From positions 30,525 to 94,524 of the forward strand of contig JANSYO010000013.1 of assembly GCA_024742395.1 (NCBI GenBank): a stretch of 64,000 bases of DNA, given 5' to 3'. Positions within the stretch are counted from its first letter, which is position 1, and every line of letters starts with the position of its first letter. The DNA is from Cytophagales bacterium. Its GTDB lineage: Bacteria > Bacteroidota > Bacteroidia > Cytophagales > Spirosomataceae. The notes beneath the pieces were generated by a model. It saw only the letters and a list, made by a program, of their open reading frames with translations, had not been told where the DNA came from and did no database searches. A program made the translations under genes and the position numbers. This document shows positions 52,846 to 54,878 of this stretch, one piece after another.

Positions 52846-52875
52846 CAAAGATACTCAATGAAACTTCATCCACAA
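52846..52875 (-). promoter_or_regulatory. Promoter of the gldD-cdsA operon
   Basis: Minus strand TTG (52875-52873), a 19-base spacer, TATCTTTG (52853-52846): a full Bacteroidota promoter match about 25 bases before the gldD ATG. It overrules the longer gldD start. Confidence 0.8.
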
Positions 52876-53025
52876 TTGCCAAAGAAGGGCTCATTTCTAA
52901 AAAGCAACTATTTTACCTGGTATTCCTCCCTAATATTAGTGATACCGCCGTAAAGCCATTCTGCAGAATTTTGACAGATCAATTAATTGTTTTTGAGTCT
53001 GATCTTTTAATAAAGTTGTATCACC

Positions 53026-53343
53026 ATGAAAAAATCGAATAAACTCATTTTTTTGGGAGCTAAAACAAGCCTTTTCCCCGCTGAAGTCACACACCTTGAA
53101 GCAGAAATAAACTATACCAAAGTCTATACAGCCAATGGCCAGAATTTGGTATTATCCAGCACCATGAAATCTGTTATGGAATGCCTGCAAGAGCATGGAG
53201 ATTTTATAAGGATAAGCAGAAAGCACGTAGTAAATATGGAGTTTGTAAAATCGACCAGAAAAGATAGCCTTACGCTAATAAATGGATTAAAGCTTAATCC
53301 CTCCAGAAGAAAAAGAAGACAATTAAACCATCTATTTTCATGA
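53026..53343 (+). CDS. LytTR DNA-binding domain protein, no receiver domain
   Basis: 105 residues, essentially one LytTR domain: VTHLEAEINYTKVYTANG, VLSSTMKSVMECLQEH, FIRISRKHVVNMEFVKSTRK, LTLINGLKLNPSRRKRRQL. LytTR domains bind DNA at spaced direct repeats; stand-alone versions lack the phospho-receiver, so how it is controlled is unknown. Its stop overlaps the ATG of the next gene (ATGA), so the two are cotranslated. The basic end (SRRKRRQLNHLF) is as in the LytTR recognition strand. About 200 bp of upstream sequence with no clear promoter. Confidence 0.88.
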   Translation: MKKSNKLIFLGAKTSLFPAEVTHLEAEINYTKVYTANGQNLVLSSTMKSVMECLQEHGDFIRISRKHVVNMEFVKSTRKDSLTLINGLKLNPSRRKRRQLNHLFS

Positions 53344-54221
53344 AACACATTGCGATAATACTTCCACTTTTTATTTTTTCAATTTCAGCATTTGCAGTAC
53401 CTATCTCTATTCCAAATGCTTCTTTTGAGGCTTTCCTCGTTAATGAGGGATTTGATAGCGATGGGTTAGTAAATGGCCAAATGGCTGACACCGACGTTTT
53501 ATCAATGACCAATCTCAATTGCACGAACGATTTGAGTATTACTGGTAATGTTGATCTAAAAGAATTTTCTAACCTTGAAGCCATAAATATAAGAGGGTCA
53601 GGAATAGGTTCCATAGATATCACTGGCCTTATAAGCTTAGTTCATTTAGATATTGGTGGGCCCAATATTATCACTGTGGACTTGAGTACAAATACCAGCC
53701 TTGAATTTCTGGGATTATGGGAAGGAATTGAATATATTGACTTAAGTCAAAACCTAAATTTGATTAATTTTTATGCCTCATTCACAGAATTAAAATTTCT
53801 GGATTTATCGAACAATATTAACATAACCTGGTGTCAGATAACTAATAACAGCCAACTTGGCAGAATTAAATTACATACTGATGTTGGATCCTACTCAAGT
53901 AGTGTTGGCATCTTTAATAACCCTGCCCTTTTCTGCATTGAGGTAAATGACATGATTCTTGCACTGAATAATTTTAATTCACTCATTTGGTTGATTAGTG
54001 GAACACATTCTTTACCCAACCCGTCAAATCCCTTTAGTTTAAGTTGCCCATCTACACCTTCAACTACCGCACTTGTTCTTAAACCCAACCTGTTAGAATT
54101 ACCTAGGCAAAGCAATACAGAGATTACAGCCTTAACCAGTACAAAACCAGGAAGTTTGGTATGGAGCACTGATGATAATTGCGTCAAAGTCTATAACGGC
54201 ACTTCATGGAATTGCTTATAA
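53340..54221 (+). CDS. Exported leucine-rich-repeat-like protein with conserved C-terminal tail
   Basis: 293 residues: signal peptide (MKHIAIILPLFIFSISAFA), an N-terminal cap (IPNASFEAFLVNEGFDSDGL) and irregular leucine-rich repeats of about 20 residues (LKEFSNLEAINIRGSGIGSI, ITGLISLVHLDIGG, NTSLEFLGLWEGIEYIDLSQ, ELKFLDLSNN). The last ~50 residues form a separate tail ending DDNCVKVYNGTSWNCL, shared with the next gene. Surface or periplasmic, binding role likely. Begins within the LytTR gene stop. Confidence 0.75.
   Translation: MKHIAIILPLFIFSISAFAVPISIPNASFEAFLVNEGFDSDGLVNGQMADTDVLSMTNLNCTNDLSITGNVDLKEFSNLEAINIRGSGIGSIDITGLISLVHLDIGGPNIITVDLSTNTSLEFLGLWEGIEYIDLSQNLNLINFYASFTELKFLDLSNNINITWCQITNNSQLGRIKLHTDVGSYSSSVGIFNNPALFCIEVNDMILALNNFNSLIWLISGTHSLPNPSNPFSLSCPSTPSTTALVLKPNLLELPRQSNTEITALTSTKPGSLVWSTDDNCVKVYNGTSWNCL
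54171..54221 (+). repeat. Repeat unit 1 coding the shared C-terminal tail
   Basis: The last 51 bases of the LRR-like gene. Compared with 54767-54817 they differ at six positions, all silent: both copies encode the same 16 residues and a stop. Confidence 0.85.
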
Positions 54222-54232
54222 CCAAAAAAATT

Positions 54233-54817
54233 ATGAAAAAACTTACATGTCTCTCACTTTTGTTCCTGGGGTTGCTATCCAAATCATTTTCTCAGGAAAT
54301 CGAAGCTACTTTCCCCGGTGGAAGCATGGGGGTAATGGTTCAATGGGGAAACAGCTCTGCAACACCCGCATTAGACTCTGGCACCAACAAATATGTTCTT
54401 TGGGTAAGCTCAATTAGTTTTCAAACATTGATGTACAGGCAAAATGGATATTGGTACATCTGGATAGCTCAGTTTGGTCAATACGGCGGAGATTATGGAA
54501 GATGGAAATATCCCATTCAAAGTACTTCGGCCGACCCTCCATGTACAGGAACCTGGGAGTTTTATCCTCCCGGAAGCTCAACCACCAACGGGCAAACCCG
54601 TGATTTCACCATGGTGCCAACTAATGGAGCCGTTTGCTCCGTACCACCTCCTCCATCTGTTCAGTCAACCATTCTGGCACCCACCGGCTTAACATTGCCA
54701 CAGCTTTATAACACGCAAATTTTTGGAATCACCTCTCCTCAACCCGGACAAATGGTTTGGAGTATTGATGATAATTGCGTAAAAGTTTATAATGGCACTT
54801 CCTGGAATTGCCTCTAA
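54233..54817 (+). CDS. Exported protein with the same C-terminal tail
   Basis: 194 residues: signal peptide (MKKLTCLSLLFLGLLSKSFSQ), an aromatic-rich domain of about 110 residues (VLWVSSISFQTLMYRQNGYW, GQYGGDYGRWKYP, GTWEFYPPGSS), a proline linker (VPPPPSVQST), and the same C-terminal tail as the preceding gene (TSPQPGQMVWS, then DDNCVKVYNGTSWNCL). No known family recognised. Starts 11 bp after the LRR-like gene, so it is cotranscribed with it. ATG 54233 is preferred over 54206 because the signal peptide follows it directly. Confidence 0.72.
   Translation: MKKLTCLSLLFLGLLSKSFSQEIEATFPGGSMGVMVQWGNSSATPALDSGTNKYVLWVSSISFQTLMYRQNGYWYIWIAQFGQYGGDYGRWKYPIQSTSADPPCTGTWEFYPPGSSTTNGQTRDFTMVPTNGAVCSVPPPPSVQSTILAPTGLTLPQLYNTQIFGITSPQPGQMVWSIDDNCVKVYNGTSWNCL
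54767..54817 (+). repeat. Repeat unit 2 coding the shared C-terminal tail
   Basis: Last 51 bases of the second exported protein gene; partner of 54171-54221 with 45 of 51 identical bases and an identical protein product. Confidence 0.85.
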
Positions 54818-54833
54818 CTTATTTCGAATCTCT

Positions 54834-54878
54834 GGGTTGAAATTTTTGTTCTATCTTCACGAACAAAGATTTCAACCC
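54834..54878. repeat. 18-bp inverted repeat directly before the acyl-CoA oxidase start
   Basis: Left arm 54834-54851 and right arm 54861-54878 pair over 18 positions with one G-U, around the 9-base loop TATCTTCAC; the ATG is at 54880. No U-tract follows on the plus strand, so it is not a terminator. It could be a regulator operator or an RNA hairpin that hides the ribosome-binding site. Confidence 0.85.

What the first reader, a model, noticed from the sequence alone, without database searches (positions are those of the whole stretch)
53026..54817. LytTR-only regulator fused by overlap to two exported proteins with an identical C-terminal tail
A receiver-less LytTR protein overlaps an exported LRR-like protein (ATGA), and a second exported, aromatic-rich protein follows. 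Both end in the same 16 residues, DDNCVKVYNGTSWNCL, within a homologous ~50-residue tail. The coding sequences of that end differ only at silent sites (six of 51), showing selection on the protein. The tail may be a surface-attachment or sorting module not linked to the usual T9SS domains; the LytTR protein may control the cassette. I know of no described system of this form.
Basis: partly seen in the sequence, partly recalled or inferred. Interest (0 to 1): 0.7.

Follow-up and report, generated by a model that had tools for sequence, protein, structure and literature searches.

The report
Sensor-wired LytTR and surface-protein cassette
In front of this small regulator gene and its two exported-protein genes lies a near-copy of a DNA palindrome that, in related bacteria, sits before a sensor pair's own regulator gene and before other exported-protein genes, so the cassette is likely one output of that sensing circuit; the protein tail that drew attention is a widespread module of such proteins, not one unique to this spot.

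Summary
In detail: a receiver-less LytTR gene (53026-53343) overlaps an exported LRR-like gene by ATGA, and a second exported gene follows; both end in the same 16 residues with 6 silent differences in 51 nt. The tail is not confined to this locus: it recurs in 20 of 222 genomes of the family and in Flavobacteriia, mostly C-terminal, sometimes directly behind the signal peptide.

The LytTR link is real within the family: 7 of 20 tail-gene stretches fetched hold a LytTR gene, once fused in frame. But the clearest control element is another. A palindrome, TCCCTA-N4-TAGGGA, lies 84-99 bp upstream of LytTR (one mismatch). In relatives it stands before a NarL-type response-regulator gene (19 of 30 loci; control 4 of 600), before receiver-less LytTR genes and before exported genes: 21 of 25 perfect sites in genomes with that regulator, 3 of 16 without, 69 of 600 random positions.

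Best reading: the cassette is an output of a two-component regulon, LytTR acting as relay or amplifier. Binding, expression and tail function are inferred. Ten paper searches listed no such system. Interest 0.6.

The parts
52927..52942 (.). palindromic operator TCCCTAATATTAGTGA, one mismatch from TCCCTA-N4-TAGGGA; 83 bp between it and the LytTR start codon
   Evidence: only match with at most one mismatch in the 64-kb window, none in 5 mononucleotide shuffles; the aligned position in the G130 cassette holds TCCCTAGGATTAGGGA; genome searches
53026..53343 (+). receiver-less LytTR regulator, 105 aa
   Evidence: PF04397 43.7 bits, E 3.4e-11
53340..53343 (+). ATGA stop/start overlap between LytTR and the first exported gene
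   Evidence: sequence; an exact -4 overlap occurs in 7 of the 46 LytTR/signal-peptide pairs in 5 genomes, this one included
53340..54221 (+). exported LRR-like protein with C-terminal tail, 293 aa
   Evidence: relative P0003
54057..54218 (+). tail module of the first exported protein; last 16 residues at 54171-54218
   Evidence: 62% identical to the second tail over 50 residues; codon comparison
54233..54817 (+). exported protein, 194 aa: small beta-rich domain (precomputed Pfam PF26696) plus tail
   Evidence: model pLDDT 85, pTM 0.64
54653..54814 (+). tail module of the second exported protein; last 16 residues at 54767-54814
54834..54878 (.). 18-nt inverted repeat with 9-nt loop just before the next gene, possible end of the transcript (inferred; no T run seen)
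   Evidence: I2, 94% complementary

Best explanation
The cassette (palindrome, receiver-less LytTR gene, two exported tail proteins) is likely one output unit of a two-component regulon: a NarL-type response regulator encoded elsewhere in the genome is predicted to bind the TCCCTA-N4-TAGGGA palindrome 84-99 bp upstream of the LytTR start and to switch on one transcript. Shown: the palindrome, its place, its recurrence before the response regulator's own gene, before LytTR genes and before exported-protein genes in related genomes, and the gene overlap. Inferred: that this regulator binds it, that the effect is activation, and that the LytTR, made from the same transcript, relays or amplifies the signal (part of the receiver-less LytTR genes of the family have 21-bp direct repeats upstream, the known LytTR site geometry; this cassette has none in strict form). 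The exported proteins would act at the cell surface; the tail is predicted to be a small unit of three short strands with two invariant cysteines, with weak profile matches to phage virion and tail-fibre families, and likely serves assembly or docking.
For: Same cassette in G130 (LytTR, ATGA, two tail proteins) inside a locus with histidine kinase, response regulator, papain-like peptidase and three palindromes. Kinase: HisKA_3, HATPase; regulator: Response_reg 76 bits, GerE 65 bits. Regulators of G000 and G147 are 73 and 68% identical to that of G130. Palindrome at two mismatches or fewer 70-154 bp before the regulator in 19 of 30 loci returned (6 perfect, 8 with one, 5 with two); control stretches of the same size in the same loci 33 of 600, and 4 of 600 with each locus' best site masked. 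Perfect sites: regulator, LytTR or signal-peptide gene start downstream for 21 of 25 in regulator-bearing genomes, 3 of 16 in others (p 6e-5), 69 of 600 random positions (41 of 43 perfect sites examined). 13 receiver-less LytTR genes in 12 genomes stand behind a site with at most one mismatch to the relaxed form TCCCYA-N4-TRGGGA. The 11 of them on a tree of 124 need 6 changes (some branches weakly supported), so the site follows a shared regulator rather than one LytTR clade. In G131 the same gldD/acyl-CoA-oxidase gap holds a perfect palindrome before another exported gene.
Against: No binding or expression data. G131 and G042 carry such sites but have no regulator match at E 1e-65 or better. 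G163, G160 and G168 have LytTR, tail genes and a regulator relative, yet no palindrome with one mismatch or fewer in the stretches fetched around their cassettes. 11 of 30 regulator loci lack a site with two mismatches or fewer. The window's copy has one mismatch, and kinase and regulator are on another contig (C87). With one mismatch allowed the reversed control pattern gave 3 matches in G130 against 4 (in G000 1 against 14); only the perfect pattern is clean there (3 against 0). In G039, G041, G042 and G044 the site lies between LytTR and a divergent gene that could be the target instead. One of G217's seven perfect sites precedes a gene without signal peptide. LytTR autoregulation of this very cassette has no direct support.
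Confidence: 0.6

Rival explanations
1. The LytTR itself binds the palindrome and is the regulator of the cassette and of the other palindrome genes; the two-component system is a neighbour or a target.
For: 13 receiver-less LytTR genes stand behind such sites; the window, G130 and G217 LytTRs fall in one clade (3 of 4 tips, support 0.88) and the five of G039, G041, G042, G044 and G122 in another.
Against: LytTRs behind the site come from several lineages; sites occur in regulator promoters without any LytTR in the fetched 14-16 kb (G088, G053); described LytTR proteins bind direct repeats (PMC6193735, passages read), whereas GerE-type regulators bind inverted repeats (recalled).
Confidence: 0.15
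2. A LytTR regulatory system of the HdrRM kind: the downstream exported protein holds the LytTR inactive until a signal arrives.
For: Receiver-less LytTR followed by a coupled gene, as in hdrRM and brsRM; in three loci LytTR is fused in frame to a signal-peptide-like stretch and an exported domain (L102, L058, L275), which would make a membrane-spanning regulator; 21-bp direct repeats upstream of receiver-less LytTR genes in 15 of 101 regions against a mean of 3.5 at other spacings.
Against: The window's exported proteins have one N-terminal hydrophobic stretch and no further one (19-residue maxima 1.26 and 0.63), so nothing stays in the inner membrane if it is cleaved; no strict repeat upstream in the window.
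Confidence: 0.15
3. The tail is a C-terminal sorting or surface-attachment signal.
For: In 76 of 80 kept loci of one scan the motif ends within 17 residues of the C-terminus of mostly exported proteins.
Against: The same module sits behind the signal peptide of long proteins (L041, L110, L103) and inside others (L039, L095); no match to curated sorting-domain models. The scan's pattern favours one variant of the motif, and 80 of 118 relatives were kept.
Confidence: 0.1

Closest known systems
LytTR regulatory systems (HdrRM, BrsRM; PMC6193735, passages read)
   Same: Receiver-less LytTR gene first in an operon, coupled to the next gene; direct repeats about 21 bp apart upstream of part of the family's receiver-less LytTR genes
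   Different: Next gene encodes an exported protein, not a transmembrane inhibitor; the window cassette carries a palindrome and no strict direct repeat; a two-component regulator is likely upstream
NarL/LuxR-type two-component regulons (site geometry recalled)
   Same: HisKA_3 kinase next to a receiver-GerE regulator; inverted-repeat operator, also in the regulator's own promoter
   Different: Operator sequence, the LytTR genes, papain-like peptidase and exported tail proteins as outputs; I know of no described regulon of this make-up
Type IX secretion C-terminal domains, including GCX_COOH (NF045639; its link to type IX secretion is recalled)
   Same: Exported Bacteroidota proteins with a shared end; one palindrome-linked protein of this genome does end in GCX_COOH
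   Different: The tail matched none of these models in the scans made and is not confined to C-termini
Phage virion / tail-fibre families (PHROGs)
   Same: Weak profile matches of the tail to several PHROGs, a few of them named tail fiber or virion structural protein; short structural matches to phage proteins, mostly uncharacterised (best ones 41-51 columns, rmsd 0.6-2.4)
   Different: Evidence weak: best PHROG E 5.8e-5 (an unnamed family), named ones 1.1e-4 to 0.05; the short BFVD matches have E above 0.03 and their range in the model is not shown; carried by exported chromosomal proteins

Membership tests
LytTR regulatory system (LRS) | LytTR DNA-binding protein without receiver domain | tested here: met
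LytTR regulatory system (LRS) | co-operonic transmembrane inhibitor protein | tested here: not met
   both downstream proteins have a single N-terminal hydrophobic stretch by a hydropathy rule; whether it is cleaved is not known
LytTR regulatory system (LRS) | 9-bp direct repeats about 21 bp apart upstream of the promoter | tested here: not met
   window: no 9-mer pair with one mismatch or fewer at 20-23 bp in 250 bp; one pair with two mismatches at 20 bp, overlapping the palindrome. Family: 15 of 101 regions at 21 bp
LytTR regulatory system (LRS) | positive autoregulation | not testable with these tools
   needs expression data
NarL-type two-component regulon | HisKA_3 kinase paired with receiver-GerE regulator in the genome | tested here: met
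   G130 pair; G000 relatives on contig C87, kinase 57% and regulator 73% identical
NarL-type two-component regulon | inverted-repeat operator in the regulator's own promoter and at target genes | tested here: met
   19 of 30 regulator loci; 21 of 25 perfect sites; window copy with one mismatch
NarL-type two-component regulon | direct binding and regulation | not testable with these tools
   needs binding and expression assays
Type IX secretion C-terminal sorting domain | match to a curated sorting-domain model | tested here: not met
   NCBIfam and Pfam scans of the window proteins and relatives
Type IX secretion C-terminal sorting domain | always at the C-terminus | tested here: not met
   module behind the signal peptide in L041, L110
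Phage tail-fibre module | significant profile or structure match | tested here: inconclusive
   no tblastn match of the second tail in 50,697 phage records at E 0.1

The most novel reading that the evidence does not exclude
A new extracellular sensing island of this family: a kinase/regulator pair, a papain-like CWAAS peptidase, a membrane protein and a small protein ending in GGGG...PPP (a possible peptide-signal precursor cut by the peptidase) drive, through one palindrome, stand-alone LytTR relays that are translationally coupled to exported adhesin-like proteins.
Probability: 0.15. Interest if true: 0.8.

Novelty: new variant of a known kind. Interest (0 to 1): 0.6.

Why it matters
If right, it explains what many stand-alone LytTR genes of these bacteria are for: private regulators coupled, by overlap or fusion, to single exported proteins, some of them wired to a common sensor by a palindrome. 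It gives a sequence that predicts surface-protein genes under one sensor in several genera and makes the circuit testable with one binding assay and one deletion strain.

Tried and rejected

My signal-peptide rule is crude: it called 102 of 249 other genes in the same loci and 18 of 59 window genes positive, made at least one false call (L051) and missed at least one likely signal peptide (L265). So the count of 46 of 99 receiver-less against 9 of 51 receiver-bearing LytTR genes (p 6e-4) is approximate. Left out of the 99 by the filter: ORFs over 185 aa (with them the three fusions) and matches with long extra stretches; for G217 only 20 of the listed receiver-less genes were fetched. In the repeat test the receiver-bearing set (57, with duplicates) has no hit at 21 bp but a peak of its own, 7 regions at 39 bp, that I did not explain. 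The regulator search scored 13 candidates per genome. The family is unnamed in the genome set; I take it as Spirosomataceae because contigs of G160 and G168 have the lengths of records titled Runella aurantiaca and Spirosomataceae bacterium.

A published account was sought in 10 paper searches; from PMC6193735 I read passages, of the others only listings and abstract starts.

Full report
Observation. The three genes are as described. LytTR is a 105-aa stand-alone DNA-binding domain; it overlaps the first exported gene by ATGA; the second exported gene starts at 54233 going by the database proteins. The two C-termini share 16 residues with five silent codon changes (six nucleotides) in 17 codons; over 50 residues the tails are 62% identical. 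The N-terminal parts differ in kind (LRR-like against a PF26696 domain), so the tail is a portable module.

The tail elsewhere. In the own genome it matches a third gene, on contig C87, at E 2.7e-6 and others weakly. In 222 genomes of the family 20 have matches at E 1e-5 or better, 33 places. A scan of public genomes by a pattern from the tail found 118 relatives and kept 80 loci, most of them Chryseobacterium, with Pedobacter, Sphingobacterium and others. In 76 of 80 the motif ends within 17 residues of the C-terminus of a mostly exported protein. In 3 of 80 a LytTR gene is in the held DNA, and these 3 are the records behind G160, G168 and G147, seen before. In other proteins the module follows the signal peptide (L041, L103, L110). 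It has no curated family in the libraries scanned. Two Cys, two Gly and one Trp are invariant in 36 aligned sequences. Profiles point weakly to phage virion and tail-fibre families; the short structural matches to phage proteins carry no range, so their link to the tail is my assumption. It is a common structural unit, not a private tag.

LytTR partners. Of 20 tail-gene stretches fetched in related genomes, 7 hold a LytTR gene (L092, L093, L094, L101, L102, L103, L110), in six of them directly upstream of a tail gene or fused to it. In G130, same genus, the cassette repeats with ATGA overlap and two tail proteins, far from gldD. In G147 LytTR, signal-peptide-like stretch, exported domain and tail are one 311-aa frame. 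More broadly, in five genomes 46 of 99 receiver-less LytTR genes are followed within 100 bp by a signal-peptide gene on the same strand, against 9 of 51 receiver-bearing ones (p 6e-4, crude rule); seven overlap by exactly 4 nt. Two further in-frame fusions to long exported proteins were seen (L058, L275). Upstream of 101 receiver-less LytTR genes 9-mers repeat at 21 bp in 15 regions, against a mean of 3.5 at spacings outside 20-23 (maximum 7), and in none of 57 receiver-bearing ones, which have an unexplained peak of 7 at 39 bp. 21 bp is the LytTR site geometry described for HdrR (9 bp, 12 bp, 9 bp; PMC6193735, passages). The window itself has no such pair with one mismatch or fewer.

A palindrome. 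Aligning the window and G130 upstream regions showed TCCCTAATATTAGTGA against TCCCTAGGATTAGGGA in the same place. A genome search found the element clustered: in G000 four perfect copies on contig C87, one of them beside the third tail gene, and the window copy; in G130 three copies within 4 kb of the cassette. The reversed control gave, with one mismatch allowed, 1 match in G000 against 14 and 3 in G130 against 4, and none in either for the perfect pattern. At these sites stand a response-regulator gene in both genomes, the LytTR cassette in both, the C87 tail protein, a reprolysin-like exported protease, and in both genomes a 76-aa secreted-looking Cys-rich protein.

The two-component system. 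The kinase (HisKA_3) and regulator (receiver plus GerE) are adjacent, with the palindrome between or at the kinase end. G147 has kinase, palindrome, regulator, membrane protein, small lipoprotein-like protein, peptidase, palindrome, two exported genes, palindrome, LytTR-tail fusion, in this order. Regulator relatives at E 1e-65 or better occur in 69 of 222 genomes. In the 30 loci returned, the palindrome at two mismatches or fewer lies 70-154 bp before the regulator in 19; random 220-bp stretches of the same loci hold one in 33 of 600, and in 4 of 600 when each locus' best site is masked.

Specificity. The perfect palindrome occurs 43 times in 30 of 222 genomes: in 14 of 44 genomes with a regulator at 319 bits or more and in 16 of 178 others (p 3e-4). 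Of the 41 sites whose context I examined, 21 of 25 in regulator-bearing genomes and 3 of 16 in others have a regulator, receiver-less LytTR or signal-peptide gene start downstream (p 6e-5); random positions 69 of 600. Thirteen receiver-less LytTR genes in 12 genomes lie behind a site of the relaxed form with at most one mismatch; the 11 placed on a tree of 124 are scattered, with two clusters and some weak branches. In G039, G041, G042 and G044 a divergent gene shares the site.

The locus. In G131 the gap between gldD and the acyl-CoA oxidase, where the window cassette lies, holds a perfect palindrome and a different exported gene without LytTR; in G130 the gldD locus holds a lone LytTR gene. 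The gap seems to exchange its content.

Mechanism. I commit to: kinase to response regulator to palindrome to one transcript with LytTR and two exported proteins, LytTR then relaying or amplifying. Shown are sequences, positions and co-occurrence; binding, direction of regulation, the LytTR step and the tail's role are inferred. Against it: sites without the regulator (G131, G042), cassettes with a regulator relative but without the palindrome (G163, G160, G168), 11 of 30 regulator loci without a clear site, one mismatch in the window copy.

Known or new. It works like a NarL-type regulon and resembles LytTR regulatory systems in gene order, but misses the LRS membrane inhibitor and, in the window, the direct repeats. 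My 10 paper searches listed no account of this circuit; most subscription papers are not in that library.

Noticed in passing
L376:10863-11369, L374:11590-12009, L442:6183-6662, L444:5655-6179, L445:8203-8745: Beside the peptidase and kinase genes lies a small protein ending in GGGG...TPPP or a variant; in the G088 and G053 loci it and the peptidase seem to lack a signal peptide. A possible peptide-signal precursor, untested.
   Followed up: partly
L374:9558-9788 (-) and L376:15086-15316 (+): A homologous 76-aa secreted-looking Cys-rich protein (CCKG-WS-W motif) follows a perfect palindrome in both genomes.
   Followed up: partly
L058:2616-6001, L275:649-3507 (-), L102:4087-5022: In-frame fusions of a LytTR domain to a signal-peptide-like stretch and an exported protein.
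   Followed up: partly
L298, L323, L059, L326, L277 upstream regions: Clear direct repeats of 10-11 matching bases at 21 or 23 bp spacing upstream of receiver-less LytTR genes, different in sequence from gene to gene.
   Followed up: partly
L120-L195: The YNGT-W-C module ends many exported proteins of Chryseobacterium and other Bacteroidota, often with a further Cys at the very end; no curated family matched in six proteins scanned.
   Followed up: partly
L114:4949-6161: G131 has another exported gene behind the same palindrome in the same gldD/acyl-CoA-oxidase gap.
   Followed up: partly
G099 and G106 genomes: 47 and 38 copies of TCCCYA-N4-TRGGGA against 2 and 1 for the control, only 3 and 2 of them with an A/T core; probably a repeat family.
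   Followed up: no
window 52849-53025: The palindrome lies between gldD and LytTR and could also touch gldD expression; not tested.
   Followed up: no
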